Assembly (NCBI GenBank): GCA_029237695.1
Contig: CM055267.1
Coordinates: 13,871,105-13,935,104, forward strand
Direction: 5' to 3'
Length of the DNA stretch: 64,000 bases
Origin: Conchocele bisecta
Lineage: Eukaryota > Mollusca > Bivalvia > Lucinida > Thyasiridae
Shown: piece after piece, positions 32,431 through 51,601 of the stretch
Layout of the letters: each line of letters starts with the position of its first letter
Numbering within the stretch: position 1 is the first letter of the stretch
Program-made: the position numbers and the translations under genes
Notes under the pieces: model-generated
Databases searched by the model: none
Told to the model about the DNA's origin: nothing
Seen by the model: the letters and a program-made list of their open reading frames with translations, nothing else

Positions 32431-33042
32431 CAACACACATGCAAATAGACGGGTCTTATAAACACGGCGTGTTTCGGCTTTCGTCGGTACTGCTATAATT
32501 GAACGGCGCTGGGAATACTGATTACAGTACAATGATTACTTCCCTTGATATTAAATAACGCCATTTGCTTTGGTATGTATTATATATATATAGTTATTCC
32601 GATGAAAGCCGAAACACGCCGAATGCCTATGCTTATAAATAGCTCGGTTACCGAACTCGGAAATAGTGCACTACTTCAAAAGCATCAGCATTTGGGGAAT
32701 ATGTTGGTTACACTAAAAGACGTCCGGTCAAACCGACAAATCCCGCCAATTCTAACGTCAAGAATATCGGCAATTGTTCTAAGAGAAGTTACTAGTGTTC
32801 ATGATTGTCCATGTTCCGTACGTATCTTATTGATAAGACTGGTCTATATCTGTTTCGCACTCCTGTATGCTAAACTTTGTACTATTTAATTGTTTGGAAG
32901 AAACTTGTATTTTTGTAAAATAGTACTGTCAATCACTGTATATCCTGGTGAGACTGCTCGTTCATAATAGGCTCAACAGGAGCGCCGGAAACATCATAAG
33001 ATTGGTCCGGCGAATCTAGTGGGTGCACCCGCTACCCACCCA
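32431..33042. other. No gene; short inverted repeat
   Basis: CGTGTTTCGGCTTTCGTCGG at about 32470 is matched by inverted GATGAAAGCCGAAACACGCC near 32600. The ORF over this region has no recognisable content. Confidence 0.5.
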
Positions 33043-33115
33043 AAGTGTATGTTGTTACCACTCAGTTGAACCGTCTCGCCGAGACGGTTCAACTGAGTGG
33101 TAACAACATACACTT
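33043..33115. repeat. Palindrome P3, copy 2 (perfect)
   Basis: A 73-bp palindrome, AAGTGTATGTTGTTACCACT to its exact inverse, with a single central base. It is followed by CTGATGAGAAATGAG as in copy 1. It lies 66 bp left of the Polinton. Confidence 0.92.
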
Positions 33116-33176
33116 CTGATGAGAAATGAGAAAAAAATTCTGGAAAAATATGTACATTCCGTTTGTTTATATAGGA

Positions 33177-33181
33177 ATTCC
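33177..33181. repeat. Polinton target-site duplication, left
   Basis: ATTCC here is repeated at 50055-50059 directly outside the right end. Polintons usually make 6-bp duplications; only 5 bases match here. Confidence 0.75.
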
Positions 33182-33513
33182 AGTAGTATATAAGAGTCAA
33201 AATGATACCACCACCCTCTGGAAGCCACCGGCTACACGTGGTGCCTCCCACCAGGTGGTGCTATAATTAATGACTCTTATATACTACTCAGATTTTCCTC
33301 CATTTTTATGAGAATATTTATGAGAATGGGAGTAATTTTAATTTTTCAAAACACGAAGGGGGAGTAAGCATAATTTTTTTTAAAAACACACCTACTGTTC
33401 GGCGGGTATGTATGAGAACATATTTTTCATCAACCGCGAGACCATATATTTATGACATGAGAAGATACACCCCTATTAGAGATAAGAAAATCCCTATGTT
33501 TATACTCAGTATA
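33182..33513 (+). repeat. Polinton left terminal inverted repeat
   Basis: It matches the reverse complement of 49729-50054 at about 95 percent, with a few small indels (one being ATTAAT versus ATT after CTATA). Its first 107 bases (33182-33288) form their own inverted repeat, because the tip AGTAGTATATAAGAGTC returns inverted at 33272-33288. Confidence 0.95.
33467..33513 (+). promoter_or_regulatory. TIR-linked upstream element, copy 1
   Basis: ACACCCCTATTAGAGATAAG followed by a TATGTTTATACTCAGTATA end. Part of the left TIR. The same element recurs at 33552-33594, 49729-49771 and 49360-49400, the last three directly before ATG codons. Confidence 0.6.
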
Positions 33514-33551
33514 TTACAGCAATCTGTCATACATTTATTACAAATAAACTT

Positions 33552-33594
33552 ACACCCTATTGAAGATAAAAATCTATTGGTTATACTCAGTATA
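33552..33594 (+). promoter_or_regulatory. TIR-linked upstream element before polB
   Basis: ACACCCTATTGAAGATAAAA, then GGTTATACTCAGTATA, ending immediately before the ATG at 33595. It is a diverged duplicate of the TIR copy at 33467. It may carry the core promoter or 5' leader of the polymerase gene. Confidence 0.6.
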
Positions 33595-36500
33595 ATGTCT
33601 ACCATAAAGCAAATGAGAGAGCAAGCTAAGAGTTGGGGAATTTTCCCTAAGAGGTTTGAGACTCAAGAAAGATATAGCAGATAGGATAAGTGACGCGCGA
33701 GCCATCGTCTACGAGGAGAGGCTGCGACGTGCGGTTTCGACCGGACGACTGCCCGCTGACCCTGAAAAACGCTCCGAGAAATTGGAGAACGAGACGACGG
33801 CCAGTCTGCGCGCCACTGCTTACGCGCAGCGTGTAAAAGAAGATCCCAGCGCGCGTAGAAAACCACTATTCAAGGCGTACTACAATAAGATTTATCAAGG
33901 GTTGGTTGGGAGACCTCCTAAGAGTAGGAGAGATATCGCCAGAGCTTTGGTGGAGGAGGGTCCCAGGATTCTCGCCGAAGAAGCCGAAGTTAGGGAAACT
34001 GTTGATAGGGGTAGGAGGAAGATAGTATGGACTTTCGAGAGGGGGGTAGATGGGGAGATCGCTAATCGCATAATGAATAAAATTCGTCCAGAGATGACCA
34101 CCGGCGTGTTATCTGAGGTATTCGTGCTCGTATCGTATTAGGAACATAGAGACCGACGCTACTATGATCTATCACAAACAATCAAAGGGCAGTCCGTGGA
34201 TAAAACGAGATCGCCAAAGCCGAGAGTTGGATATCCGATAGAGAGAAAGGTCGAATGGACATCGACAAAGTTGATAGACAAACACAAATGGACCTTCGTT
34301 CGTTGGATATCGGTCGAGGTGAAGATGATCATCGACGCTCAACAACTTCTCATGGGAGCGGGAAAACTCCCAGACTGGTTAAGACAGAAAAAGGGAATGT
34401 ATTCCGTCGACACGTACGACGACTACTTGTGTCTGTTTAGGTGCATAGCCATCCACCGTGGAGGGAGACCAGACCGCTGTTGTGAGGAATGCACGAACTC
34501 TAGCTAACGAATATCTCGGTCACGATAACGGACCGGATAGTAAGGGAATTCCCTTGAAAGATATTAAGAAGGTCGAAGAGCACTTCAAGATGGGCATTCG
34601 CGTGTACGAGCCCACCGACGAGGAGTGTGGTATCTCATGAAGGTTCCGGCAAATTACGATGTGGTTGGGGAGAAGACAATGACGATAGGAATGTTTGGAG
34701 GTCACTCTTTCCTCATAACGAACCTCCGCAAGATGACGAACGAGTACGGGTGCTCCGGATGCCAACAACGGTTCACAAAGTCGTGTAACATGCACAGGCA
34801 CGCGACCACCTGCATGGGTGGGAAGACCGTGGTGACATGTCCAGGTAAGATCGTAGAGAGACCACAGTCTGCATACGAGAAGGCGTTCTATCCCAAGGGG
34901 TCAGCGAGCGAGAGATCGATTCAATGGTTGAGCAGAGAAGAAGAGAGATTGGGAAAGCACATACATCACGCGAGATGCGGTCACGGTGGAGAGAGGTGGG
35001 TGGCCGGCGATCCTGTCGATGGATATTGTCACGAGACCAAGACCGTGTTTCAGTTTCACGGATGCTACTGGCACGGGTGTCCGATTCATCACGGTAATAC
35101 AGCGCTGTATATGAGGTACAGGAAGACGAAAAATTCGAGACGCCAAGATAAGGAGGCGGGTTACGAGCTGGTGGTGATGTGGGAGTGCGAGTGGTTGAAT
35201 GAGGAATAATCCTACTATCCACAATCACCGCGCGAGGAGGAGACGACTCTGTACCCTCACCAGATAGTCTATGACTTCGAGGCGTATCATCGACAAGTCA
35301 AAAACCACTCAACCCACCAAAGACCTGACCTTCGAGGTCGAGCACGTTCCTATATCTGTGTCTTTGGGGGATACGATGCATGAAGGGATAACCACATCTG
35401 CGAACGAGATCCTGACACGCTAGTCGAGAAGTTCGTGACGAGCTACAGATGAGAGGCAAGGCAATCAGGGAGGGGGTTAGGAAGAAGTATCTGCCGGCCG
35501 ATATAGATATGCTATCGAAGTCCTCAGCAAGCAAAGATTGTCTCTTGGATTGACCAAGTCCCCGGTGGTGGGGTTCAACTGTAGCAGGTACGACCTGAAC
35601 CTCATCAAGCAGTACTTTGTCGAGAAGTTGGCGGCCACCGTGACTAAGGTGATGGTCGGAAAGAGAGCCAGCACGACGATGTTTCTGTTTACCCCGGAGT
35701 TTAGATTTCTCGACATCATCCAGTATCTGGGACCCGGTACCACGTACGACCGGTGGGTTAAGGCGTACGACTGTAAAAACGATAAAGTCTCACTTCCCGT
35801 ACGAGTGGTTCGATAGCGCGGACAAGATCGACCCATCCGGGGGCTGCCAGACATTCCCGAGTGGTTACTCGAAGTTGAAGGGTGAGTTCCTACTGTCGTT
35901 GTCCGAGTGGAAAGAGTGTAAGAAGGTATTCCAAGAAAATGGATGAAGACGTTCAAGGAATGGTTGCACACTACAACGACTTGGATGTCGGACCGTTCCT
36001 AGAGGCTCTAACTAAGATGACGGAGTTCTACAGAGGAAGAGGTGTGGATATACTCAAGGATGCTGTGTCTCTGCCCGGTGTTTCCCTTCAGTACCTACTT
36101 CGTGGGACGATCGATGGGAAGGCGGACACACCCGAGCTGTGGTCACCGAAGTCTGAAACTTATGAGATGATGAAGCAGGGATTGGTCGGTGGTCCGTCCA
36201 TAGTGTTCTCCAGATACGCAGAGGCTGGCAGGTCGACGATCAGGGGTCAGGTAGGTAGTCGGGAGGAGAAGATGTGCAAGGCGGTGATGGGGTACGACGC
36301 CAATGCACTGTATCTGTCTACCCTGTCGAAAGACATGCCGTGCGGGGAGGAGACGATATGGACGTGTGACGACCCGGAAAGACAGTCGTATATAGACTGT
36401 TTCGTGAGGAAGGTCAGGAGTGAAAAGTGGTTCGGATTTGCGGAGTTGGATATAGAGGTCCCGGAAACGTTGAGAGACAAGTTCTCGGAAATGTCACCGC

Positions 36501-37543
36501 TGTTCGTTAATCAAGAAATCGATGAGAACGATGTTCCGCAGCACATGAAGGATTACCTGGCCAGTACCGGGAGGAAAAGGGTCGAAGGACAGAGAAAGCT
36601 CGTGGGGGCAATGTCCGCGAAGAAGATGATCATATACTCCCCACTGCTAAAGTGGTATCTGGAGCACGGTCTGATCATCAAGGCGGTGCATAGGGTGATA
36701 GACTACACGCCCGGCAAACCGTTTCAGTGGTTCGTGGAAGAGGTCACCGCTGCCAGACGGACGGGGGACGTAGACAAGAGCAAGACGGTGTTGGCGGAGA
36801 TATTCAAACTGGTTGTCAACGCGTGTTGTGGCAAGCTAATAGAGGCACAAGAGAGACACCTGAACACCACATATACGAAGGATGAGAAGACTGTCGACCG
36901 GGCACTGAGGTCGGCGTGGTTCGAAGACCTGGAGGAGATTGGGGAGGCTTACGAGATATCGAGCAGGAAGACTCGAGTGGTGATCAACAGACCGTTTCAG
37001 TGTGGCATAGCGGTCTACCAGTTGGCCAAGCTCCGGATGCTGGAGTTCTACTACGATTTCTTGGACAAGTACGTGGATCGCGGAGATTTCGAACTGATAC
37101 AGATGGACACTGACAGCATGTACTTCGCGCTGTCGGAGAAGACGCTGGCGGCGGTGGTGAGAAAGAATATGAAGAGAAAGTTTAATAAGGAGAAGACCGA
37201 GTGGTTGGCGTGGGACGCGTGGAGCAACAGAACTCCGGGATTGTTCAAGCTGGAATTCGAGGGAGATAGAGCCATCGCTCTGTGTAGCAAGTGTTACTAC
37301 GTGAGTGGTGATGGAAAATCTAAGCACTCGGCCAAGGGGATGTCGAAGAGATCTAACGATCTGACTTGGGGAAGAAGGTATAAGAGTGCTCTCGAAGGGG
37401 GTAGGGATATGGCGGAGAACAGGGGATTCCGAATGATTAACGGGGTGATGAAGACGTACTGTCAACAAAAATTAGGACTCTCGGCGTACTACGACAAGAG
37501 GAGAGTGATGGAAGACGGGTTGCACACAGAGCCTATAGGATAG
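33595..37543 (+). pseudogene. polB: Protein-primed family B DNA polymerase (pPolB)
   Basis: Replicates the element by protein priming. The coding region is spread over overlapping open pieces (33595-33684, 33656-34141, 34196-34507, 34458-34640, 34625-35209, 35538-35816, 35882-37543), about 1,300 codons in all, normal for Polintons. Visible in order: a D-x-C-x-F-R...H stretch (YDDYLCLFRCIAIHRGG, about 34408) typical of the Polinton amino-terminal region; a C2H2 finger (CSGCQQRFTKSCNMHRH, about 34755); an endonuclease-like VFQFHGCYWHGCP (35045); exonuclease motif I YDFEAY (35270); motif II VGFNCSRYDLN (35571); motif III YNDLDV (about 35974); polymerase motif A YDANALYLSTL (36294); motif B NACCGK (about 36818); motif C MDTDSMYFAL (37102); and KCYYVS (37289). 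Catalytic aspartates are present. The start at ATG 33595 is chosen because the TIR-linked element ends just before it. At least six frameshifts break it; stops within pieces are rare. Confidence 0.93.
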
Positions 37544-37586
37544 GTAAAAAAAAGAACTCTGAAAAAAGGATAGAATACTAAAGACT

Positions 37587-38570
37587 CTAACGATCCGGGG
37601 GTAACTGGGTGTCAGAAGGCACCATAAGAAGTTCTTCGCGAACAAAACCGCGAGATGGACCATCAGTCAAATAATAGAGCACGGGCTCATCAGGTTTGGT
37701 AATAGAGCGATCCAGATGATATACATTCATTGACCACACGGGATCAGTCGCGCGGCGGCTGCCACCTTCGAGCTCTCCCGGTTGATAGAGGTACCGGACG
37801 TCAATATCTGATGGAAGCCGCTGCTCCTCTAAACCAACGGGTCGCCCGCGCGAGACGGCAGAGGGCTTGCTCGTCACCCTTTTAAACTTGATAGCATCTA
37901 CAGGCTTCTTACCTATCAATCTGGTCACCTCTCCGTTCAGTGCGGAGACCACGGCGGGCAGTCTGGCCACCCACTCGGTCGACCGTGAATGGGGGTCTAC
38001 AAGTTCTTTGGCGTAATTGGTGTCCGAACAGTCTCTCAGCCAGGGTTCGATTGAAGCGTTCCACGATCCCCTGGTCCCGGTGGATGTTGACGCGGCCGCG
38101 TCTGATAGAAACTTTATGCTTAGACAATAGATGAGAGACCGCGCCATGAACTCGCGGCCGGGATCGACCTGGAGAAGATTCGGCCATTTGAGAGGACTCC
38201 TCTTATATATTCGGGAAAGAGCCTCGGACACTTCCTTAGACTCTTTAGTGGCCAACGGCTCAGCCCCCTTATAACGACTCGCTACGTCAACGATTGTCAG
38301 TGCGTACTTGTACGTTTTTAGCGACCGACGCGATCGTGAGGGAGAAACAGGAGATCCGCTTGGTGAACTTGGTTCGGCACCGGCACGTCGAATTCGGGCG
38401 CGGAATATTGTGAGGCGCGGGTAAATAGATCTGCCAGATGGCCTGCTTCTTGAGCCATTCCTTGACAGCGTTTTCTGAAACCTTGGGCGCCGCGAGGTTC
38501 TTGATGGCCGCGAGTCCCTTCCAGTACCGCGTGGACTATAGTATGTATTCGACAGCTGCGCGTTAGTTTG
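37587..38570 (-). pseudogene. int: Retroviral-type DDE integrase of Polinton
   Basis: Integrates the element. Pieces in different minus-strand frames show a YYSPRG start (about 38540), a basic helical segment with KQAIWQIYLPAP (about 38430), a first catalytic aspartate in a DLLFLPHD-type stretch (about 38350), the second in LLQVDPGREF (about 38165), the glutamate in GIVERFNRTL (about 38050), then the carboxy part YLYQPGELEGGSRRATDP (about 37790) and PVLYYLTDGPSRGFVREEL (about 37660), a conserved chromodomain-like end of Polinton integrases. Length about 330 codons, normal. At least three frameshifts. It is convergent with polB, 44 bp apart. All three catalytic residues can be seen, in different frames. 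Confidence 0.92.
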
Positions 38571-38919
38571 GTATCAAGTTTTGCGCGTGTTCATCGTATG
38601 CGAATATTCTAATATATCGGACAATCTCCAACATGCCCTCGCCAGTTCGTCCGGTAACTGCGTCGTTTAATAATAAACCTTTGTTGGAAGTTTCGCTGCA
38701 GCCCCAATCGCGTTGGGTTGGAACAGGAGAGGGGAAATCTAATTCATCCAATCTCGATTGGGAGGAATCTAACATCCGCTTTGCGAAAAGGGTGGCCGCT
38801 TTTTCGTCCTCGAGACAATCTCGGGCCAGATAACATACTCTTTGCAACCAGGTAAAACGATGTTTTTGGGCAGTGTAGCCTACATCGATCATAGCGTTAT
38901 AAAGTTCGTCAACTAACAT
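38563..38919 (-). CDS. Unrecognised 118-residue Polinton protein
   Basis: An intact ORF starts MLVDELYNAMIDVGYTAQKH and ends EHAQNLIPN. It is mostly helical and charged in appearance (FTWLQRVCYLARDCLEDEKA) with no transmembrane span or motif I can name. An AT-rich leader precedes the ATG. Its stop overlaps the beginning of the integrase region. Its first residues resemble those of the small membrane protein starting at 39621 (MLVNALYHAVVIS). It contains two of the CCAAT...ATTGG palindromes in its reading frame (38703-38717 and 38748-38761). Confidence 0.65.
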   Translation of the reverse strand: MLVDELYNAMIDVGYTAQKHRFTWLQRVCYLARDCLEDEKAATLFAKRMLDSSQSRLDELDFPSPVPTQRDWGCSETSNKGLLLNDAVTGRTGEGMLEIVRYIRIFAYDEHAQNLIPN

Positions 38920-38967
38920 CGTTCTATATATATATTTATAAAAAATAAAAAAAATGTTTTTAATTAA

Positions 38968-39325
38968 TTAATTTAAAATCTCGATTGAATAATAGCCGAC
39001 GAGACCCACCACACCCATTCCCACGACGATGAACGCGATCTCGCGGTCTTTTTGGGGCTCTGATGGTACATAGAAATCTGAAAGTTGGGGCTCGGGATCC
39101 ATTGGATCGAGACTTTTGTGCGGATATTGCCAGCGCGTACTCGCTGGTTGGCTTCTTCAACGTTCTGAAAAGTTTGCGCGGCGTGATTTTCGCGGCGAAG
39201 CTCTTCATTGACCCAGTCCAGATGGGCGGTTCGTTTTTTCGACCACGCTTCCTTTGCGCTATTGAGTTGTTCTAACAGCTAAATCGTGACGCTTAACGCT
39301 CCTCATCCACGTTCGAGCTTTTCAT
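38968..39325 (-). pseudogene. Small Polinton protein, coiled region plus C-terminal TM
   Basis: Starts at ATG 39325 (MKSSNVDEE). Pieces in successive frames give a charged helical middle (EAWSKKRTAHLDWVNEELRR) and, in the last frame (38968-39102), MDPEPQLSDFYVPSEPQKD followed by a hydrophobic span REIAFIVVGMGVVGLVGYYS and a short tail. The same layout (helical body, LSDFY...S-E-x-Q-K-D, single carboxy-terminal span) is one I associate with small conserved Polinton proteins of unknown function. Three or so frameshifts. The final 44-codon piece alone is an open frame too short for standard ORF lists. It may be a minor virion or membrane protein. Confidence 0.6.
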
Positions 39326-39420
39326 TTTAGAGAATATAAAGTTGCTACCGCTGAACGCCAATGCGTTTACAAGCGCCACCACCTACTATTACTGCGATTG
39401 AAGCCATTTATTTCCATATA

Positions 39421-39621
39421 TTAACTGGTAGAAATTTCAGCTTTAACTAGATAAATCTCGGGTCCAAACTGCGGCGCTACATCTAAAGTCGCGAGCCCTG
39501 CGTCTCTCACAGTAAAGTCCAATTTGGGAGTGGACCCTCCTAGGGTCATCTTTGATAGTCGAGCATACCCGATACTGAAAACAGATATCACCACGGCGTG
39601 ATAAAGCGCATTCACTAACAT
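39421..39621 (-). CDS. Small membrane protein, 66 residues
   Basis: Intact ORF beginning MLVNALYHAVVISVFSIGYA, an amino-terminal hydrophobic helix, followed by RLSKMTLGGSTPKLDFTVRD and a short tail ending in STS. Similar short proteins with an LYHA-type hydrophobic start occur in animal Polintons. The last 15 residues may be out of frame through an indel, because the preceding GLATLDVA looks like the start of a second hydrophobic stretch. Function unknown. Confidence 0.65.
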   Translation of the reverse strand: MLVNALYHAVVISVFSIGYARLSKMTLGGSTPKLDFTVRDAGLATLDVAPQFGPEIYLVKAEISTS

Positions 39622-39674
39622 TTACCATCTTGTTCAGCCATTGTTATAAATTATTGCTATAAAAGGGATCGCGA

Positions 39675-40210
39675 TCAATGTTTAAATGGGGCGCATCCAA
39701 ATTCAACATTGTTGATGATTGTGTTTAGTAACTTTCTTCTGAACACTGCTGGTTGTTTTTTCTGGTATTTCCACACGCACAGGGCACCAACAACTGCCAG
39801 ACTACCACCAACAAACCAACTCCAATTCGTGAATAGGGGTTCAGTCAAACTCCAACGGGAGTTTGGTATTGGGTGACAAATTCAAAGAATTTGGGTGTGC
39901 TTCCAATTCGTGAATTTGGGGTGTTGTTGTACTCAACTCTGTCTTCAGATGTTTTGCTGTCTCCGTCCCCATCAATTCAGGAATTTGCTGCAACCCCAAT
40001 CTCGATTGGAGTTTAGCCTCTCGAAGCTCGGCGAGTATTTTAATCTTGTTTAACTTTTCGGGTGGCAGCCGCCGCCCTCCCAGCTGCCTGTCTTTTGGGA
40101 TTTTTTATATGTGGTATGTCATCCAGTGGCGGAGTAACACTCTGGTTCGATTGTGTTGGAGCAATCGGGTTCAACTCCGTCACTCTCGTGGGTGTGTCTT
40201 GTGTCATCAT
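39675..40210 (-). pseudogene. NPKRxAAG-motif protein with C-terminal TM
   Basis: ATG at 40210 opens MMTQDTPTRVTELNPIAP; the same frame runs through PPLDDIPHI and KNPKRQAAGRAAATRK, a basic motif I associate with a conserved small Polinton protein. A second frame carries KLNKIKILAELREAKLQSRL and the third carries a transmembrane segment (WSWFVGGSLAVVGALCVWKY) and a basic tail ending at 39675. At least two frameshifts. The middle contains five or six small palindromes (39822-40009), so much of its linker is palindrome-derived. Likely a virion-associated membrane protein, by analogy with minor proteins of related viruses; inference only. Confidence 0.6.
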
Positions 40211-40230
40211 TTATAATATTAATATAGAGC

Positions 40231-40760
40231 TTATAGGTTCGTGGGCATATATGTCCAAATTGACAGTGTTTCTTTACCCGTGGTCAACGCGGTTGTCAGC
40301 GGAGCTAAATACATTCCAAACTTGTGATAAATTGAGCAGCAGGTTTGTTTTCTAAGAGTGTGTTCTATAAAAGGGTCAGTCTCTAGATCGTGAATCAACC
40401 CTTCGTGTTTGGAATAGGGAGAAGTCTACTAACGGCGGTAGCGTACAAATGAATAGCCGCCGATCCAAGAGTTTTTGTCATCTCTGCTCCCAATTGGATT
40501 CGTATCGCGCATACATTTTATCAATCTCCGCATCTGACATCTTATCCACCTGAAAAAACTGTGAGACGCCTACCTAGATAATGCTCCGATTGTCCCCCAG
40601 CAACCAGCGCAGCTAGCCGCTCTCGTCGCGCCGCATTTTCATTTTCATTCGGAGTCGTTGCACTCAACCCAGATCCCGATTGCTCTGTCGGATCATTATT
40701 GTTGCAGTCGGGAGTTGAGGTTTCTTCTATTAGCTGATCGAGAAGTTCGTCGCAGTTCAT
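40231..40760 (-). pseudogene. Conserved Polinton protein of unknown function
   Basis: ATG 40760 (MNCDELLDQLIEETSTPD) follows directly after the AT-rich upstream element at 40763-40782. The frame runs through ARRERLAALVAGG; then, in other frames, KMSDAEIDKMYARYES, MTKTLGSAAIHLYATAVSRL and FGMYLAPLTTALTT, ending at 40231. The MSD-x-EID-x-MYARYE and KTLGSAA blocks are ones I recognise as recurring in animal Polintons without assigned function. Three frameshifts. The frame is also open upstream to 40904, adding a hydrophobic segment (SFVASIMVIISIGWCAWQYV). That may be a separate small membrane protein or a longer amino-terminal form. Confidence 0.6.
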
Positions 40761-40762
40761 TT

Positions 40763-40782
40763 TTCTTAATTTTTTCAAAATT
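40763..40782 (-). promoter_or_regulatory. AT-rich palindromic upstream element
   Basis: CTTAATTTTTTCAAAATTAG immediately upstream of ATG 40760. The same motif occurs at 41093-41110, 41744-41760 (before the ATPase), 43098-43115 (before the capsid gene) and, as TAATTTTAAGAAAATTA, at 43156-43175 and 46548-46568 before plus-strand virion genes. Confidence 0.55.
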
Positions 40783-40904
40783 AGTAATTTAACTATTCTA
40801 ACAACTCTCATCACTTTAACATATTGCCAAGCGCACCACCCGATACTTATGATCACCATTATGCTCGCAACAAAGCTCGCAGCGGAGCACCAAATTGTTA
40901 ACAT

Positions 40905-41065
40905 TGTTAACCATTGTTAAGCATTTGTTCAGCATTATTCAGCATTTGTTCAGCATTTGCTAAGCATTGTTCAGCAATTGCTAAGCATTGTTCAGTATTT
41001 GTTCAGCATTGTTCAGCAATTGCTAAGCATTGTTCAGCAATTGCTAAGCATTGCAATAGCTTATT
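40905..41065. repeat. 21-bp tandem repeat between Polinton genes
   Basis: AGCATTGTTCAGCAATTGCT and AAGCATTTGTTCAGC-like units repeat about seven times. TTGCTAAGCA and TGTTCAGCAA alternate. The plus-strand ORF over it (CSAIAKHCS repeats) is a by-product. Confidence 0.85.
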
Positions 41066-41120
41066 ACTTTGCAATTTTCCTAATTTTATAATTTTCCTAA
41101 TTTTTTCAAAATCGTTAGAT

Positions 41121-41709
41121 TTAGTTGATAACTTTATAAGCAGTTGGTTGATCAGTCTTTAGAAGAAGCTTGGCGTGCTTAGTTTCGGAAAGCATCTGTC
41201 GAACCTCCAGGCGCTCCTCGCGCGTTGGGATAACGTCATTCTCCCGAAGACAGTCATCGAATGAGTCTCGGTCCTTGCAGTGAAATAGGGCGACCCATTT
41301 CGTTTGCTCGCGCAGATCCTTGAGGACGGCATTGTATTTTTGAGTGGATATCCATACGCTTTGCCTCGCATGGCGGCCAGAAAATGCGAGCTCGGAGAGC
41401 ATGTCCTTCTTTTTGGTCATCGCCGCCTTGGCTGAGCGTTAAATCGTCAATCACGTATAGGGTGGGCTCGCCCTGAAATATTTGGTATAAACCACGCAAC
41501 CAATCGTGAAGCCTATCACCGGGGTCAATAACGTATACCTCAGGGTCGGTCCATATCCACGGGCACCGCTGATAAGTATCGTTGTGCCGCACAGTGGGAC
41601 ATAGGATCACAATGTGACGAAAGGCATCGCGGTAGGATCCCTCGAGTAAGTTGAGGATGAAAACCGTTTTTCCACATCCTGTCTGCCCACTATATGGCGG
41701 AGTGAGCAT
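41121..41709 (-). pseudogene. atp: FtsK/HerA-type DNA-packaging ATPase
   Basis: Polinton packaging ATPase of the A32-like FtsK/HerA group, expected to load DNA into capsids. Walker A is SGQTGCGKTVF near the start (about 41680), Walker B-type TLYVIDDL (about 41455) with adjacent acidic residues, then MLSELAFSGRHARQSVWIS (sensor region, about 41380) and LREQTKWVALFHCKDRDSF (about 41300), ending LLLKTDQPTAYKVIN. I choose ATG 41709; the AT-rich element and a CCAATCGTGAATTGG palindrome lie directly upstream. One frameshift near 41430 separates the Walker-B part from the rest, and the segment just before Walker A looks a few residues short. Length about 200 codons, normal. Confidence 0.93.
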
Positions 41710-41799
41710 CTCCAATCGTGAATTGGTATTGATTGCTAGATTTCTTAATTTTTTCAAAATTATGTATTAATAAATCGTTAGAATGATTTTTTTATTAAA

Positions 41800-43095
41800 T
41801 CAGTAGATCGCTGATACGTATCGACCATCTTCGATGTTGAGTTGTGCGTCTGTAATTATATATAAGTACACGTTCAATGGCCCGGCTCCGTCCGCCTCTT
41901 TGGTTATCTGGATCGTCACACCCTCACTAGCGTTCTCACATTGGCGTCCGCTACCGTGTATTTGGTCATCGTCGCTGGCTCGCATGTCTAGCCATAACGC
42001 GTATTTGGTATTCAGGAACTCCGCGAGGGAGACGGCCGAGAGATGCAGGTCTTTAGCAACTGCTGCAACCTCCGGAGAGCGCTTAGATCCGGCAGCAAAC
42101 TGCTTTCTTACTTCATCCCACTGCTGGTGCGCGCGAAGACCCGCGCTGTAGAGTTGATTGGGGACTCCCTCGATCGTCACCTCTACCTTCGTGATTTTGG
42201 GGTTAAAGAATCTGTCGGTTTTTCTAGCACCGAACGCGAACCGAGCATCCTCGAACAACATCAGTATACCTTTCATCGAGCGGGCGGGTACGTTGACGTT
42301 AATATTCCACAATGTGTCGCTTTTGTTTTTTCGGCATCTTGCGATGGCGAAGAACTCGGTCGTAAAGTATGGCAAAGCGCCCGCGTACTGGGTTTCTGAT
42401 CAATCGCGCTAGTTCGTCGGGCATCGTGACCATGTCGTACTCCAGCGAAACATATCGATCGTATACGTCGATAAACTGGTCGGTGGCTATGAGAACTCGG
42501 CCGTAGTCGTTGAACGTTAGTTCGTATTCGAGGCGGTCAGCCAAAGCACTCTGATAGTAGGGCATGTGACTCTCTAGCAACTCAAAGTCGAGCGGAATGT
42601 AGAAGCGGTTGCCGTAAGCGCCCGCGACCGCGTTGTCACACGCGTTGTTATCTGCCTTGTTAGCAGCCCCGATTCTAGTTTGGTTACGTTTTTTTTTATT
42701 TTGCTGGTGTCAATACCTTGATAGACGCGTTTTCAAGCTCGTGTGACGTCTTCCACAGGTCCTGATAGCAATGTAGACGTCGCTGTCGTCGATCGACATC
42801 ACCTCATTACCAGAAATCTTTATCATGGTCTTCTTGACGATGGCGCGACCCAGGTTCTGAACTACGGTTCGGTCCGCGTCCGTCGATGTAGCGAAATAGT
42901 GAAAGCGAGCGAACAGTACCAGGAACAATGACGTCGTTAGCTCCGAGGTTGGGGAAGCGACTAAGAGCTGCTGGTTCTGGTCGATCGTAGATGGGTTGTT
43001 CGTAATAACGACACTCTGTCTCACCTTTTGCCCCGAGGGGCTCACGCAGTCTGCGGTAAGGATTGAGTTTGCGACCGTAATTGACTCGAAGACAT
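41800..43095 (-). pseudogene. mcp: Major capsid protein (double jelly-roll type)
   Basis: Polinton major capsid homologue. ATG 43095 (MSS) lies directly after an AT-rich upstream element. Minus-strand pieces: 42710-43045 (SPSGQKVRQSVVITNNP, LVLFARFHYFATSTDADR, EVMSIDDSDVYIA), 42299-42580 (SHMPYYQSALADRLEYELTF, VSLEYDMVTMPDELARLI, AILYDRVLRHR) and 41800-42375 (DTLWNINVNVPARSMKGIL, MLFEDARFAFGA, NPKITKVEVTIEGVPNQLYS, SEGVTIQITKEADGAGPLNV, ending NIEDGRYVSAIY). Together about 430 codons, as in other Polinton capsid proteins. At least three frameshifts. A jelly-roll fold is a family property; I cannot fold it here. Confidence 0.9.
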
Positions 43096-43180
43096 AATTA
43101 ATTTTTTCAAAATTATTGAAACTATTAAACCCGTATGGTTTTGTCTTTAATACATAATTAATTTTAAGAAAATTATAAAT
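43096..43180. promoter_or_regulatory. Divergent intergenic region between capsid and plus-strand gene
   Basis: These 85 bases separate two divergent ATGs. It has one AT-rich element facing each way: AATTTTTTCAAAATTATT towards the capsid gene and AATTAATTTTAAGAAAATTA towards the gene at 43181. Confidence 0.6.
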
Positions 43181-44463
43181 ATGGCTGATTACGAATGTTG
43201 AAATGGATGCAATCGGTAGAGACGATTACCTCGATGGTGATGATGATGATAACGAAAGCGCCCTTCATAGAGACTCCAGTTCCAATCCAATCGCAATTGG
43301 GAAATAGGTGGCGCTACCAGCAGCGTTGGTCAAAGTCAGGAATTACTTGAGGAGCTGTAAACGACTACTACAACAATTTGTCAGAATCGGTCTGGTCCCG
43401 TCTGTCGGTCGCGACTACTCCAAGTTCGAATTGGATATGCATGGTAGGTTGCGACTAAAATCATCAAATCTCCCAATAATCAACACGAATACCGGTAAAC
43501 CCCTATCGCTAAACACCATTGCCGGAAACCGGGGCGGTGGCGAAATCATAAAGAACGAACTAGGATTTCCAGATTGGACGCGTGGTAAAACAATTGTGCC
43601 GGCCCGCGCTGTAGAGGCCCTACAGTCTACCGACGAAACTATAGCGAAGACGGCCCACCGCGATAGAAACGGTTGATCTCAGCGAGGTCCCTAAAATAGC
43701 CACCGACGTTATTAACACGATGGAGACCACGTTCAGCGTGCAATCACAATTGGGGAAAATACTCAACGATGACCCACCGTTACCTCTTCGAGAACTCCGT
43801 GGACTCGATAAGCTCTACAAACGGTCCGGGGCGAATGGTCCTTAACCTCCCTCCAAACTCACGGCGCTGGATGAACATATCGCGCTAGAAGAAAGAAAAC
43901 TGGAGGAAGCCGGTGACGATAGAGAACTACCGAGCGGATCAACAAACTCCTGCGGTCTTTGCGGGATGAAAGAGAAGCTCGCTTGGAGGCCGCCTCGCTA
44001 ACCGTGAGGCTCTCCGCACACAAATAAGTCGGATCCGCGAATCAATCTCGAGGGTCCTGCACGAGGAGACGACACTCGTGAGCGTCTTCGCACTCGTTCA
44101 GAGAGCAGGGCGTCACGATAGCAAGCTCCTCGTTGCTATCGGCATGACTATATCGACCATAGTTTCTAGCTTTCACGTGGTGCGGCGCCACCACCCGCTC
44201 CAGCACCAGCACCAGCACCCACTCCATCCGGTGGAGCCAAGGAGTGGGTAAAAAAACAACTAAAAGCCCTCGCCAATCTTCTAGCTAAATTAGCTGGATA
44301 AAGGTGGCTGCCGCACTACCTGACTGATCGAAGTATCGTTTCTTACTTGCTATCTATATTATCAAAAACGGCCGGATGGCTAGCCAAAAATACCTGGGCT
44401 TTAATCGTGGCAATCGCCGGTCTCCTACTATTCTTCGCCAGAGTTCCTACAACCAAAGCGTAA
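43181..44463 (+). pseudogene. Large coiled-coil protein with hydrophobic C-terminus
   Basis: ATG 43181 (MADYE) follows an AT-rich element. Pieces give an acidic start (DDYLDGDDDD), a middle with YSKFELDMHGRLRLKSSN and VPARAVEALQSTDETIAKT, then LPLRELRGLDKLYKR, coiled-coil HIALEERKLEEAGDDREL and LRDEREARLEAASLNREAL, RIRESISRVLHEETTL, a proline/alanine linker (APPPAPAPAPAPTPSG), GAKEWVKKQLKALANLLAKL, and a hydrophobic end SKTAGWLAKNTWALIVAIAG. This ordered layout recurs in proteins of invertebrate Polintons whose function is not known to me. At least five frameshifts. Its 3' end overlaps the convergent minus-strand gene by 17 bp. A membrane-active or minor virion role is only a guess. Confidence 0.65.
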
Positions 44464-45851
44464 ATAATCCGATCGCCACGAGGGCGATGACGAGCCCCAA
44501 TTTAATCTCCTCCTCGTGTGTTGTGCTTCCAATTTCAACATTGTTGATGATTGGTGTTTCTCCAATCGCGATTGGTCTGTTGATGGAACTCGATGGTGCA
44601 TCCAATTTACGAATTGGGGGTACTGGGTTCGATTTACGAATTGGGGGAGGTGTATCCATTTTGTGTTTTATGAAATCGGTTCCACTGTTGGGGGTGCGCT
44701 TGATGATATCCGTGTTCACGTTACCGTTGTGGCCGATTTTTTGATTGACGGTGGCGATTACGATGATTATTGTAACCGTCAACCGGGTCGTCTGTAGTAT
44801 CATATTGCTCGGCGCCATATAAAGACCTATTCCAAATACATAGTCTACTGGGGTGCTGGCATTCTGTAAAACGTCTTGATAATTCTGGATTGCCTTCTCC
44901 AGGTCCACCCTAGCTGAGATGGCGTCCTCAACAAGTACCAAGAACTGTTTTTGCGCGTCAAACGCTGTTCCCATGCCCAGTATAGAACTGCGAGTTTGTT
45001 TTTGTGCGCCGAGGATGGCCCAGACGTACGTGCGAATAGATTCGTTGACGTGAGTAACCCCGGCCTGCGTGAACCCTATACCCTTATCTAACATAAATGT
45101 ACCCACGCGTCCTGAACCCTCGCAGCCTGCTGTATGTAATCGACGTGAGCCCGTTTCGGAGGTAACATTTTACAAGAAAACACGCCACAGAGCGACCCCA
45201 AAACCACACTTCTGGCCCGAAAGTCATCGTCGCGGGGTCAAAATTCCCGGCGTTCCGACTGACGATGTGGTCACCGGAGTGATCGTGTCTAAAATCAGTC
45301 TGTGTCCAATTCCCGGACTGGCCGTGAATGAGAACGTCCCGAGGCCGGTGTGGTAGGAAATGCTTTCTGTCTCCAGTCCGCGTCTTTTGAAACGTTAAAT
45401 TCGTTACACAGTCTTCAAAGGCCAATACGGTCGTGCGTTGGAAATGGGATCCCAGGCGTCGTCTTGAGTAGTGAAATACCTATTCTTTGAGAATCCTCCT
45501 AATAGTATAATACGTGTGAAAGTGTAGGACACTTCGGAGCATGACATTCTTGGATGTCAGATGGTCTTTATGTGAAACTCCACACCCGCTGTTGCGCACC
45601 ATACAGCGAAATTTATTTTGGTTCTGCCAAAACTGCATCGGTGTTGCTTTCCACCCGTTTACCACCTCCATCGTAGTAATCTTGGGCAGCCTATATTGTT
45701 CAAAGATGTTAGGGAAGTTGGTGGCAAAGCCACTGTCCGGTCTAACCGTTTACGGTTGGGTGTACAAGGGGTTAACAACGTCTTTTTGTGTGTATTTACC
45801 TCCGACCGCGTACTTTACATTAGAGTTAAAGCTAAATGCTTTGGTATCCAT
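44447..45851 (-). pseudogene. Conserved structural-type Polinton protein, C-terminal TM
   Basis: ATG 45851 opens MDTKAFSFNSNVKYAVGG. Later pieces show LPKITTMEVVNGWKATPMQF and GVSHKDHLTSKNVMLRS (about 45700-45560), a DDAWDP-type block, then 44447-45106: DKGIGFTQAGVTHVNESIRT, YVWAILGAQKQTRSSILGMG, TAFDAQKQFLVLVEDAISAR, a region with proline-rich PPIRK repeats made from palindromes, and a single carboxy-terminal span EIKLGLVIALVAIGLFTLWL. About 460 codons. These blocks recur in a protein that accompanies capsid genes in many animal Polintons, so I consider it structural; I cannot assign a virion position. At least four frameshifts. It is divergent from the gene at 45882, only 30 bp apart. Confidence 0.7.
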
Positions 45852-45881
45852 TGAAAGATATTATGTTTGCTACTATAACTA

Positions 45882-46548
45882 ATGGTTATTCAAAAAGGAG
45901 TTGTGAACTTCAAAAATTAATTGACAACTGCTGTGGAAAACGCCGGTAGGCCTAGATCAATCACCTTCACGGTTTGGATGGCAGAATGTGGGGAAGAGCG
46001 AATGGTTTTACTATGTGAAGGATGGACTACAATTAGAAGTAAAGCTGCCTCACGGACTGTGGGGAATAAGACAGCTCAGTTTTTGTCAACTCAGAGCTTG
46101 ACGGTATAATCAACCTCACAGTATCGAATGCTACCGGGCTCGCAACAATGACCATCAGCAGTGATAATAAGGTAGTGGTCTCCCCGGGGTTGGGTATTCA
46201 ACTCGGTTTTAGAGAGACATACTCCTCAACAAAGGAGTGTTTACCCCGGGTGAGTACGTCGGTGATAAACCGGTGGACTTCACCTTCACGAAAACTCTCA
46301 GGGTGCACCTGGATCGGTGAACACATCGTACAACACGATAGACGGATCCCCCAGCACATTACTGAAAACTGTGCCCGCCAGCGATTGTTTCTATGGCGAG
46401 ACTGTAACGTTAGACTTCCCTTCACCCAGAGATGAAAGTTTTGGAATCGGGACACATCCACGAGTTGAAGATTTATATTCTTGATGATAAAGGGCGAGAG
46501 TTGAAGAACGATTACCCGATTTCGGTCGTCCTAGAAATTTCAAATTAA
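45882..46548 (+). pseudogene. Beta-rich structural protein, penton (minor capsid) candidate
   Basis: ATG 45882 (MVIQKGVVNFKN). Pieces in three frames: YYVKDGLQLEVKLPHGLW (about 46010), DGIINLTVSNATGLATMTIS (about 46100), GEYVGDKPVDFTFTKTLRVH (about 46250), NTSYNTIDGSPSTLLKTVPA (about 46320), GETVTLDFPSPRDE (about 46390) and the end KIYILDDKGRELKNDYPISV (about 46465). Length about 220 codons, beta-strand-rich, matching the size of the single-jelly-roll minor capsid (PX-type) proteins of Polintons. At least four frameshifts. The NTSYN...G-x-PSTLL block is conserved among Polinton proteins as I recall them. The penton assignment is moderate. Confidence 0.65.
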
Positions 46549-46604
46549 TTAATTTTAAGAAAATTAGAATTAAACGCATGTTCGTAATATATATTATCAA
46601 CATT

Positions 46605-48270
46605 ATGAGTATATACGGACCAGGTAGTTCTTCCGATTGGGTGACAAATTCAAATAATTTGGAACCTGCAGAAGGGGGATTCATCCCGACAGAGGGCGAC
46701 TTTTTAACTACCCAAAAAACAAAGGCCTTGATTAATAGAACTATATCGAGGGCCACGGACGAGATTCACAAGAGTCTACTATCACAACTTAGAGAATATG
46801 CCCTGGCTGTGAATACACAAAGTCGTGAAGAAACGCATACGGAACTAAACGAACTAGGTAAAAAAATAACCAAATTTAGAAAAGAGGCCCGGTTGGGGAT
46901 TGATAAAGCCCGAGAAGACCGTAAGGCTGACATTACGGAGGTTTATGATGCGTTGCGCTTAGAAGACTCTCTCAGCAAAGAAGCTACACTTGCTGAATTA
47001 GACGGGAAAATAATCGATTTTCGAAATGAGGCCACGTCGGGTATTGAGAAAGCACGAGAAGACCACCAGGCGGACCTTATGAAGGCTTATGAGGTGTTGC
47101 GCTCAGAGGACTCTCTCATAGAGAAGCGGCACTTACTGAACTAGATAAAAAAAATAACCAAATTTCGAAAAGAGACCCGGTCGGGTATTGATAAAGTCCG
47201 AGAAGACCACCAGTCTAACCTTGCAGAGGCCATTGCGGAGGCTTATGATGCGTTGCGCTTAGAGAACTCTCACAGTAAAGAATCGACACTTACCGAACTA
47301 GATGAAAAAATAGCCGAATTTATAAAAGAGACCAGGTCTGGGTTGAGGGGGTCCGAGAAGACCACAAAGAGGCCATTGCGGAGGCTTATGGGGCGTTACG
47401 CTCAGAGAACTCTCAACAGAGAAGCGGCACTTACTGACCTATATGAAAAAATAACCGAATTTAAAAAAGAGACCCGGTTTGATCTTGATGGAGTCCGAAC
47501 GGGTATTGATAAAGCCCTAGAAGACCACCAGGCGGATATTACGGAGGCTTATAGGGTGTTGCTCTTAGAGGACTCTATCAACAGAGAAGCGACACTTACT
47601 AAACTAGATGAAAAAATAACCGAATTTCAAAAAGAGACCCGGTCGGGTATTGATAAAGCCTTAGAAGACCACCAGGCAACCATTACGGAGGCTTATGATG
47701 CGTTGCGCTCAGAGGACTCTATCAACAGAGAAGCGACACTTACTGAACTAGATGAAAAAATAACCGATAAACTGTAAACGATCGTATAGCCGCGACCAAA
47801 GCTCTTGAGGAGGCCTCTTATGAGATTCGTACTGAGGCATATAACGCAAACAATGCGCTTGCCGGAATAGTGAAAACAATGAAAACACCAAAACCGTGTC
47901 ATAACAGTTTGGCTGAGAAGCGGGGCCCATTGGTTGTGGGGCACTATGAATATTCGTTCGGTGCCAAAGCGAGTAATAAATATGGGGATACACTATGACA
48001 GCTGCAGGTGAAGTTATCCAAATGGCGGTCTGCTCGGTTAATGCTAATGGTAAACCTGTGGGCGCGGTCGCGATAAATATTGTAGTAGATGGGGAAGAAC
48101 GGGGGGTTGGAGTCACTAAAATCTCTGGAGATAGTTCGACGGTGGTTTCGTTCTCCGGTGATGATCGAATTAGACTTTCCCAAGGTAGTGTTATTAACTT
48201 TGTTACGAAAATCGGTGACTCAGAGAGTTCTTCCACTATTGTCTCATTGTTAATTGAACTTATTGTGTAA
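46605..48270 (+). pseudogene. Fibre-like protein: coiled-coil repeats plus beta-rich tip
   Basis: ATG 46605 (MSIYGPGSSSDWVTNS) follows an AT-rich element at 46548-46568. After a short amino part, six repeats of 48-52 residues, each with the pattern EAYDALRSEDS...REATLTELDEKI and FRKETRSGIDKA-type heptads, run from about 46930 to 47777; repeat starts are at 46941, 47085, 47241, 47394, 47547 and 47691. Then EASYEIRTEAYNANNALAG leads into a beta-rich end (HYEYSFGAKASNKYG; TAAGEVIQMAVCSVNANGKP; SSTIVSLLIELIV) at about 47940-48270. A rod of repeats ending in a compact beta tip is the design of viral attachment fibres. About five frameshifts. Attachment is inferred from architecture only. Confidence 0.75.
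46941..47777 (+). repeat. Six coding repeats, 144-156 bp, in fibre gene
   Basis: Each starts near GCTTATGATGCGTTGCGCTC and continues GAGGACTCTATCAACAGAGA. Starts: 46941, 47085, 47241, 47394, 47547, 47691; spacing 144, 156, 153, 153 and 144 bases, all multiples of three. Confidence 0.9.
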
Positions 48271-48298
48271 ATACTAATATATTGAAATAAATTTAACT

Positions 48299-48992
48299 AT
48301 GAACGAATCACCGCTTCCAATTGTCAATACCGATCCACCAACACTGTATACAACTCTCAATACCACTCCACCAACACTGTATTCAACTCTCAATACCACT
48401 CCACCAACACTGTATTCAATTAACGAAAAAAGTTCAGATTTTAGGTTGAATAATATCGTCGCTATGCAGGATATTTTAGTTAGAGAATGTGCAAATAGAA
48501 AAAGACACTCTAATAAATATAGGCGCGCGGCAAACATAGCTGAAGCATCTAGTACGGTTCTGGCAAGTGTTTCTGTGTTGTGTGGGGCGGGGACTACTGC
48601 AATGCTATCTACAATTGTAATGGTTCCACTTGCAGGGGTTTTGAGTGGAATTACCGTTTTATCTGGAACACTTTGTATGGTAATTAGGGCGGTGGGTGGA
48701 AAACTCGAGAAAAAAAGTAGAAAACATGATAGAATATCCGTTCTCGCTAGGTCTAAGAAAAATAGCATCGACGTTATGGTGTCCAAAGCGTTGGCCGATA
48801 AGAAAATATCAAATTTTAAGAGTTTGAATCCGTGGTGAAGAAATGGGGAGATATGAAGAATTAAAAAATGATATAAGGATCAAGGCGCGCGCCACCATGC
48901 CCAAAATTGAGTGTACTGATTGGGATAAATTTAGGGTAAAACTTGGAAATAAAGTCGGAGGAAATGTTACAGCACCAACTACAGACATTTGA
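48299..48992 (+). pseudogene. Two-span membrane protein with LYTTLNTT repeats
   Basis: ATG 48299. An 11-residue repeat (PPTLYTTLNTT) occurs nearly three times (48337-48420, 33-bp units). Then RRAANIAEASSTVLAS, two hydrophobic stretches (TAMLSTIVMVPLAGVLSGIT and VLSGTLCMVIRAVGG), a basic RKHDRISVLARSKKNSID and VMVSKALADKKIS. A frameshift near 48825 puts the end (MGRYEELKNDIRIKARATMP) in another frame, stopping at 48992. The basic-helix and VSKAL-D-KIS block is one I associate with a Polinton membrane protein of unknown function. The intact first piece (48299-48838) could also be translated alone. Confidence 0.65.
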
Positions 48993-49021
48993 TTAGTAGT
49001 GGGTAAACGAATCGTTGAAGT

Positions 49022-49353
49022 TTATACATAATACGGTAACTCGGCGCAGACAGAATCGTAAAACTCTATATCCGTAAACGAATCGTTGTTTTTAAACAGT
49101 CTTATAAAATTAGTTTCACCCTCTTCACCTAGTTGTTCTCCGATCCTATTTAGTCGCTTCATTTCACGAATATGTCTCTTGCTTAGCTTACATAATTTCC
49201 GGTATAATATTGTAAATGCAACGTTTTTATCGGAACGTAATAAATTACGCTGATATTTCATGTATTCAATTATATATAGTGCTTTCAATTTATAGAATAT
49301 TCATCAATAAGGTCATTATAAAATTCCAATTCCCATTCTATTTTATTATCCAT
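49022..49353 (-). pseudogene. Unrecognised right-end Polinton protein
   Basis: ATG 49353 (MDNKIEWELEFYNDLIDE), then a frameshift near 49290 into ALYIIEYMKYQRNLLRSDKN, LYRKLCKLSKRHIREMKRLN, RIGEQLGEEGETNFIRLFKN and the end FYDSVCAELPYYV. About 110 codons, basic and helical, with no motif I recognise. The TIR-linked element (49360-49400) lies directly upstream of the ATG, as for polB, suggesting it belongs to the same expression group. Confidence 0.55.
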
Positions 49354-49359
49354 TTTTGT

Positions 49360-49400
49360 GAGTATAACTTATAGTTTTCTTATCTTTAATAGGGTGTAAG
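49360..49400 (-). promoter_or_regulatory. TIR-linked upstream element, copy 4
   Basis: On the minus strand CTTACACCCTATTAAAGATA then AGTTATACTC, ending 6 bases before ATG 49353. A diverged duplicate of the TIR element. Confidence 0.6.
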
Positions 49401-49431
49401 TTGTGGTTAATTTTTAAAAAAATTGAACATA

Positions 49432-49716
49432 TCATATCTTTCTAACTGACTTTTCGATTTGAATTATTACTAAACGATAATACATGCGAGCACGTAATCC
49501 CTTGTTAATCATTCGATGAGTAGCCTGAGTGCCACCGCATGGTGGACATAGTAATGACTCGGCTTTGGTCCCTAACCCCACAATGCCGACAGGGGCGAGG
49601 CGAAACGGAACCTCTTCGCATCCATGCACGGTGATGTTTGCAATATTCGAAATACCGGTACGAAAACATCTCTCGTGACTACCTGTCTTCAACCACGCAC
49701 ACTTAACTAGAACCAT
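49432..49716 (-). CDS. Unrecognised Cys/His-rich right-end Polinton protein
   Basis: Intact 94-residue ORF beginning MVLVKCAWLKTGSHERCF. Cysteines and histidines occur in pairs that could bind zinc (CAW, SHERCF, HGCEE, LCPPCGGTQATHR). The end RARMYYRLVIIQIEKSVRKI is basic. I cannot name a family. The TIR-linked element at 49729-49771 lies 12 bases upstream, so its promoter lies inside the right TIR. Position at the extreme end, mirror to polB, fits an early or regulatory gene; that is inference. Confidence 0.6.
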   Translation of the reverse strand: MVLVKCAWLKTGSHERCFRTGISNIANITVHGCEEVPFRLAPVGIVGLGTKAESLLCPPCGGTQATHRMINKGLRARMYYRLVIIQIEKSVRKI

Positions 49717-49728
49717 TATGTTATTATA

Positions 49729-50054
49729 TATACGGAGTATAACATAGGGATTCTTATCTCTAATAGGGTGTATCTTCTCATGTCATAAATATATGGTCTC
49801 GCGGTTGATGAAAAATATGTTCTCATACATACCCGCCGAACAGTAGGTGTGTTTTTAAAAAAATTATGCTTACTCCCCCCTTCGTGTTTTGAAAAATTAA
49901 AATTACTCCCATTCTCATAAATATTCTCATAAAAATGGAGGAAAATCTGAGTAGTATATAAGAGTCAATTATAGCACCACCTGGTGGGAGGCACCACGTG
50001 TAGCCGGTGGCTTCCAGAGGGTGGGTGGTATCATTTTGACTCTTATATACTACT
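49729..50054 (-). repeat. Polinton right terminal inverted repeat
   Basis: Reverse complement of 33182-33513. Its terminal 105 bases (49950-50054) again form a self-inverted unit with AGTAGTATATAAGAGTC at both ends. It includes the upstream element copy 3 (49729-49771). Confidence 0.95.
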
Positions 50055-50059
50055 ATTCC
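50055..50059. repeat. Polinton target-site duplication, right
   Basis: ATTCC, matching 33177-33181. Confidence 0.75.
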
Positions 50060-50424
50060 AAATATGTCAAAAGTATTGATCCGGCAGTCGCCGGACCTGC
50101 CGGACCTGTTCCGACGACCCTGCTCTACTGAGTACTGTATATCGCATTTGCTAATAATAAAGTTGCATCTGCATGTGTATATCATGAGGTGGCAACAACG
50201 AATGTCGAACGTATATACATGTCCGTGCTTATAACAACACAACTAGACCATTGGTGGATAAACGTGATTTGACATTTGCAATGCATGCCAACCATGTTCA
50301 TCCTATTTTCATACTATCATATGAACACTACAACTTCTTAGAATTTCACTTTTGGTAGATGATCCGTTTTAGTGGCCCAAGTGGAAACTCGATGAACATC
50401 TAAAATGTCTAACTAACCCAACAA

Positions 50425-50833: not shown

Positions 50834-51022
50834 AACAATGGCTACGTGTGATAAATATTCGTCACAAGTTTATACAGATACTCACACCAATACAAATACA
50901 CATACTACTGTACTGTAATCTGCAAATAAAATATCAATTTTGACTTGGCACATGTATCTTTTCCTCTATGAACATATGCATAGAAGAAACGTGTGAAGCA
51001 TCAAACGTAGTTATAGTTATGT

Positions 51023-51598: not shown

Positions 51599-51601
51599 CA
51601 G

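What the first reader, a model, noticed from the sequence alone, without database searches (positions are those of the whole stretch)
33182..50054. Complete Polinton/Maverick with virion gene set in a presumably molluscan genome
Both inverted ends, the 5-bp duplication, a protein-primed polymerase, DDE integrase, packaging ATPase and major capsid protein are all present, with at least eight further genes arranged in strand blocks. The integrity of the ends points to a recent insertion of a virus-like element. The 5-bp rather than 6-bp duplication is slightly unusual.
Basis: partly seen in the sequence, partly recalled or inferred. Interest (0 to 1): 0.85.

Follow-up and report, generated by a model that had tools for sequence, protein, structure and literature searches.

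The report
Integrated Polinton virus-like element
This is a virus-like mobile element of the known Polinton/Maverick kind, one of a large, recently spreading family in what is probably a clam genome; its family duplicates five rather than the textbook six bases of its target and ends in a hairpin-like sequence.

Summary

Two corrections. The 5-bp duplication is a family trait: 39 of 42 elements have exactly 5 bp, none 6. And no core gene reads open end to end in this copy. That is probably assembly indel noise, since indels do not track substitutions: 5 substitutions with 35 indels in one copy, 74 with 0 in another.

Also seen: a 107-nt terminal palindrome (51 of 53 ends keep both 18-nt arms), a possible fibre gene, and a motif shared by both ends just before ATGs. 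No Ulp1/adenain-type protease was detected. Verdict: a variant within a known kind, moderate interest.

The parts
33177..33181 (.). left copy of target duplication ATTCC
33182..33472 (+). left terminal inverted repeat
33182..33288 (.). left terminal palindrome, 107 nt, 18-nt perfect arms
   Evidence: fold z -8.8 against 300 shuffles
33552..33572 (+). motif ACACCCTATTAGAGATAAGAA-like, before the PolB ATG at 33595 (further copy at 33468-33488)
33595..37543 (+). protein-primed DNA polymerase PolB, frame interrupted in this copy
37587..38640 (-). RVE (DDE) integrase, frame interrupted; upper end approximate
38605..38935 (-). small gene of about 117-131 aa in other copies, unknown
38976..39407 (-). 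gene of 143 aa in other copies, hydrophobic at both ends
39711..40236 (-). gene of about 164-170 aa in other copies, hydrophobic stretch; place approximate
40180..41010 (-). gene of about 271 aa in other copies, unknown; place approximate
41124..41855 (-). A32-type packaging ATPase (238 aa open in another copy)
41803..43146 (-). major capsid protein (446 aa open in another copy)
43301..44464 (+). gene of about 389 aa, Ala/Pro-rich with hydrophobic C-terminus; core-protein candidate
44450..45860 (-). gene of about 460 aa with hydrophobic C-terminus, unknown
45836..46545 (+). gene of about 236-238 aa; minor capsid (penton) candidate, unproved
46578..48270 (+). fibre candidate: helical shaft of 144-bp repeats and C-terminal head
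48278..48977 (+). gene of about 228-232 aa with hydrophobic stretches
49022..49353 (-). small right-end gene; ATG at 49353 follows the shared motif; weaker support
49435..49716 (-). small Cys-rich right-end gene; ATG at 49716 follows the shared motif
49377..49397 (-). shared motif, right end (further copy at 49751-49771)
49766..50054 (-). right terminal inverted repeat, with its own terminal palindrome (105 nt)
50055..50059 (.). right copy of target duplication ATTCC

Best explanation
An integrated Polinton/Maverick, that is, an endogenous virus-like element of a large, young family in a probably bivalve genome. Shown here: exact ends; insertion with a 5-bp stagger; polymerase, integrase and packaging-ATPase genes by homology; a capsid gene whose relatives model as double jelly rolls; many copies. 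Inferred from what is known of Polintons: the linear DNA is copied from its inverted ends by its own protein-primed polymerase; the OTU-like region of the polymerase frees the priming domain; the ATPase packs DNA into a capsid; the integrase joins both ends to chromosomal DNA five bases apart, leaving the 5-bp duplication. Guesses: the terminal palindrome helps the ends be recognised or replication start, and the shaft-and-head protein is a virion fibre. The interrupted frames in this copy are mostly assembly indel error.
For: Ends and duplication; empty sites; 39 of 42 elements with exactly 5 bp; PolB 1,246 relatives; rve above cut-off in another copy; Pox_A32 above cut-off in other copies; capsid relatives 2,012 and fold; 1,689 exact ends; indels uncoupled from substitutions.
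Against: In this copy the domain matches lie below Pfam cut-offs. No Ulp1/adenain protease was detected; the penton is unproved (no Pfam match). The capsid model is of a relative and only middling (pLDDT 66.9). No relatives among viral contigs; no expression or particle evidence. The founding description gives 6 bp (recalled), and vertebrate Mavericks 6 bp.
Confidence: 0.93

Rival explanations
1. A decayed provirus: the frame breaks are true mutations and this copy is dead.
For: Frames of PolB, ATPase and capsid are interrupted; 96% of vertebrate Maverick loci are eroded (PMC8097293, passages).
Against: Indels outnumber substitutions 107 to 28 in 22 pairs of ends and do not follow divergence; the window's indels in one polymerase segment are not seen in 19 other copies.
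Confidence: 0.25
2. A defective passenger copied in trans by intact relatives.
For: Seven of 78 scored polymerase copies end their frame at about the same residue.
Against: In the 20-copy comparison these copies carry different, private indels.
Confidence: 0.07
3. A cut-and-paste transposon with a Gypsy-like integrase (Ginger2/TDD type) that picked up viral genes.
For: TDD-4 and TDD-5 also make 5-bp duplications (PMC2836005, passages).
Against: Ends are AGT...ACT, not the TGTNR given for Ginger2; full Polinton core in one fixed order in other copies.
Confidence: 0.02
4. An assembly chimera or virus contamination joined to host sequence.
For: The assembly is noisy and the window has a 500-N gap at 2849-3348.
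Against: Exact duplications at 39 of 42 sites and uninterrupted paralogous targets.
Confidence: 0.01

Closest known systems
Vertebrate Mavericks (PMC8097293; passages seen)
   Same: Size range, inverted ends beginning (AGT)2 and ending (ACT)2, PolB, integrase, ATPase, capsid protein
   Different: 6-bp duplications there, 5 bp here; two strand modules facing the centre there, interleaved strands here; protease listed there, not detected here
Polintons in general, class Polintoviricetes (PMC11071308; passages seen)
   Same: pPolB with N-terminal region carrying an OTU-like Cys...His pattern, RVE integrase, ATPase, DJR capsid protein
   Different: vUlp1 protease described there, not detected here; terminal palindrome and fibre candidate not mentioned in the passages seen
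Mavirus-type virophages (PMC8547959; passages seen)
   Different: Host is an animal genome here; capsid model closer in Z to PBCV-1 (21.6), which shows fold, not kinship
Maverick fraction of the hard clam genome (PMC8905726; passages seen)
   Same: Bivalve genome of similar size (1.86 Gb) with Mavericks at 1.69% (7,091 annotated copies)
   Different: No ends, duplication length or genes in the passages seen; whether the host here is that species is not known
Adintoviruses and related animal viruses (PMC11071296; passages seen)
   Same: Similar core plan; coiled-coil capsid-surface proteins and membrane-active core proteins described
   Different: No direct comparison made; the main adintovirus paper is not held

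Membership tests
[quoted passage not shown]
   PF03175 E 2.7e-4 in this copy, below cut-off; 1,246 relatives, many with PF03175
Polinton/Maverick | RVE (DDE) integrase | tested here: met
   rve 33.2 bits against cut-off 32.6 in another copy; 20.7 in this copy
Polinton/Maverick | A32-type packaging ATPase | tested here: met
   Pox_A32 41.6 bits against cut-off 22.8 in another copy; 22.1 in this copy
Polinton/Maverick | double-jelly-roll major capsid protein | tested here: met
   Capsid_N below cut-off; fold of relative P0128 matches DJR capsids
Polinton/Maverick | minor capsid (penton) protein | tested here: inconclusive
   45836-46545 is a candidate; no Pfam match, no fold made
Polinton/Maverick | Ulp1/adenain-type cysteine protease | tested here: inconclusive
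   no Pfam match in the frames tested; a divergent one could be missed
Polinton/Maverick | long terminal inverted repeats | tested here: met
   291/289 bp
Polinton/Maverick | 5-6 bp target duplication (range of PMC8547959) | tested here: met
   5 bp in 39 of 42
Vertebrate-type Maverick | 6-bp target duplication | tested here: not met
   0 of 42; definition
Vertebrate-type Maverick | two gene modules on opposite strands facing the centre | tested here: not met
   strands interleave right of the capsid gene; definition
Vertebrate-type Maverick | (AG)3 or (AGT)2 end motif | tested here: met
   AGTAGT...ACTACT; definition
Ginger2/TDD transposon | TGTNR termini | tested here: not met
   termini AGTAGTATATAA; definition
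Adintovirus | grouping of polymerase and capsid with named adintoviruses | not tested
   no named set compared in a tree; one adintovirus protein is among structural matches

The most novel reading that the evidence does not exclude
A Polinton lineage with re-tooled ends and virion: an integrase fixed at a 5-bp stagger, ends that can fold into a branched palindrome used for both recognition and replication start, an adenovirus-like fibre with a fast-changing receptor-binding head, and no separate maturation protease; an endogenous virus family that recently spread to hundreds of loci in one bivalve genome and may still form particles.
Probability: 0.2. Interest if true: 0.65.

Novelty: new variant of a known kind. 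Interest (0 to 1): 0.42.

Why it matters
Whether Polintons live mainly as transposons or as viruses is still open (established background). A family with 1,689 exact ends, little substitution between paired ends and a possible fibre gene is a good natural place to look for transcripts and particles. The fixed 5-bp stagger and the terminal palindrome are two testable features that set this lineage apart from vertebrate Mavericks. The case also warns that broken frames in repeats of a noisy assembly should not be read as decay.

Tried and rejected
Shared disabling change: seven of 78 scored polymerase copies end their frame at about the same residue, which suggested spread of a defective copy. 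The 20-copy comparison showed different, private indels, so I dropped it.

Dating by the ends: indels swamp substitutions, so I give no age in years.

Fibre head: a search of 5.8 billion proteins gave nothing at E <= 0.001 among 112 candidates. Only proteins of fitting length that share short words are candidates, so this does not show that it is unique. The query frame may itself hold a shift. Weak Pfam matches of the shaft and of the 48278 gene lie below cut-off.

Viral contigs: no relative confirmed for polymerase, penton candidate or capsid. Sequence search of solved structures gave nothing useful for polymerase, capsid profile, ATPase or polymerase N-terminus.

Target preference: 39 sites show at most a weak symmetric pattern, too few to claim.

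Never answered: a count of inner palindrome arms, and own-genome counts for the capsid piece and the integrase piece.

In print: searches on Polintons in bivalves, 5-bp duplications, hairpin or palindromic ends, and fibre or knob gave listings. I saw passages of PMC8097293, PMC8547959, PMC2836005, PMC12220804, PMC8905726, PMC10294476, PMC11071308, PMC11071296 and PMC10120064; none of those passages describes such ends or a fibre in bivalve Polintons. One listed cryptophyte paper gives one element with a 5-base duplication (PMC12220804). The founding Polinton paper and the adintovirus paper are not held.

Full report
Check of the observation. The element starts AGTAGTATATAA at 33182 and ends TTATATACTACT at 50054 (16,873 bp). 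Inverted repeats pair 33182-33472 with 49766-50054. The flanks read ATTCC|element|ATTCC, and six bases do not match. GC is 0.44-0.52 in the seven 2-kb windows from 34001 to 48000 and 0.38 in 48001-50000, against 0.30-0.43 in 1-32000 and 0.36-0.46 in 50001-64000.

Insertion shown. I joined 200 bases of each host flank with a single ATTCC and searched the window's own genome (G000, 1.89 Gb, 1,196 contigs). One place matches all 400 bases at 93% in one piece. Of the 40 scored main places (of 2,949 candidates), 39 run across the junction; the fortieth is the window's own right flank. The matched lengths agree with one target copy to within a few bases; I did not see the alignments letter by letter. 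The target is thus a copy of an interspersed repeat.

The 5-bp duplication is a family trait. For 22 elements, the window included, I found both ends: 21 have an exact 5-bp duplication and one has none. For 20 more on contig C1, taken from the pattern search, 18 have exactly 5 bp and two match at 4 of 5. In all 39 of 42 show exactly 5 bp and 0 of 42 show 6. The first 22 were picked by similarity to the window's ends, and the 20 needed an exact 33-base end on both sides, so the sample leans to well-kept elements. Vertebrate Mavericks are described with 6 bp (PMC8097293, passages); a virophage paper gives 5-6 bp for mavirus and Maverick-Polintons (PMC8547959, passages). This is a sharp variant inside the known range.

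Family size and age. An exact 33-base end pattern occurs 849 + 840 times, with 0 and 0 for the reversed pattern. With two ends each, that is on the order of 840 elements; solitary ends would lower it and ends with a base change would raise it. The polymerase search had 19,900 unscored first-look candidates and scored 78. In the first 280 bases of the paired ends, the window and 8 of the other 21 elements show no substitution; the lowest pair identity is 0.921. The family is young; I give no years.

Gene content. No core gene is open end to end in this copy, so I searched open pieces only, and used frames open as they stand in other copies for annotation. The order is polymerase (+); integrase, four small genes, ATPase and capsid (-); a core-protein candidate (+); an unknown (-); a penton candidate, the shaft-and-head gene and a hydrophobic protein (+); and two small right-end genes (-). 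The polymerase has 1,246 relatives at E <= 0.001 among 7,996 scored, with 55-62% identity among the 120 listed. Its N-terminal region, read in another copy, contains DDYLCLFRC...GGHSFLIT, which I read as the OTU-like domain that PMC11071308 describes in Polinton polymerases (passages). Pfam gave no match, so this is inference. Integrase and ATPase pass their Pfam cut-offs in other copies, not in this one.

Broken frames are suspect. The ends of the 22 elements show 28 substitutions but 107 indels, 71 of one base and 33 of those in homopolymers. Over up to 2 kb of ATPase and capsid, against one copy with open frames, 11 sequences were compared: the window has 35 substitutions and 20 indels, one copy 5 and 35, another 74 and 0; two were covered over half or less. 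Indels that do not follow substitutions point to uncorrected read error in some copies. In one polymerase segment the window's own gaps are not seen in 19 other copies. Open polymerase frames exist elsewhere. I call this copy neither dead nor intact.

Terminal palindrome. The first 107 nt of the left end form an inverted repeat with 18-nt perfect arms. Of 53 ends, 52 hold the inner arm at 105-108 nt and 51 keep both arms perfectly. The left palindrome folds at -28.4 kcal/mol against -8.5 +/- 2.3 for 300 shuffles (z -8.8). The ends are close relatives (13 distinct sequences in 52), so conservation alone is weak evidence. A role in end recognition or replication start is a guess.

Possible fibre. 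The gene near 46578-48270 has 144-bp repeats coding a helical shaft (hydrophobic period 3.7, 4% Pro/Gly) and a C-terminal head of about 150 aa, directly after the penton candidate. Coiled-coil capsid-surface proteins are described in related viruses (PMC11071296, passages). No database relative of the head was found, and no fold was made.

Shared motif. ACACCCTATTAGAGATAAGAA occurs four times in the window with up to 3 mismatches, all in this element: two copies near each end, pointing inward (0 in 100 shuffles). The nearest copies stand 22-34 bases before the ATGs at 33595, 49353 and 49716. GTTATACTCnGTATA lies between at two of the three. I read it as a promoter of the outermost genes; that is untested.

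What is missing. No Ulp1/adenain-type protease matched in the frames tested; a divergent one may hide among the unknown genes. No transcript, particle or viral contig is shown.

Host. The genome size, TMEM11-type gene at 16687-17319 (PF14972, E 1e-56) and the capsid relatives fit a mollusc, probably a bivalve; the species is not known.

Verdict. A known kind of element with real, testable lineage features: new variant of a known kind, interest 0.42.

Noticed in passing
window 16687-17319 (-): Open frame of a host gene, Mito_morph_reg/TMEM11 type (PF14972, E 1e-56).
   Followed up: partly
window 32982-33181 and 50060-50120: The insertion site lies in an interspersed repeat of at least about 264 bp that contains a perfect 36-bp hairpin (33043-33115); many copies at 90-95%.
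   Followed up: partly
G000 C2:29008648-29032589: One element of the family is 23.9 kb long, with a normal 5-bp duplication; it may carry an extra insert.
   Followed up: no
L110 (C13:34134460-34138160): A copy lacking the stretch that matches window 39.3-41.0 kb, so the small genes there may be dispensable.
   Followed up: no
window 40893-41053: AT-rich tandem array of about 21-bp units inside the element.
   Followed up: no
window 2849-3348: A gap of exactly 500 N in the assembly.
   Followed up: no
window 3945-5267, 17995-18449, 62101-62853: Host tandem arrays of 44-, 23- and 162-bp units; the first shows 98% matches and 0% indels, so indel noise is not uniform in the window.
   Followed up: no
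window 59699-60478 (+): Open frame with a weak DUF6589 match (E 0.0027, below cut-off), possibly part of another mobile element.
   Followed up: no
window 33468-33572 and 49377-49771: Inward-pointing motif near both ends just before ATGs, a possible early promoter.
   Followed up: partly
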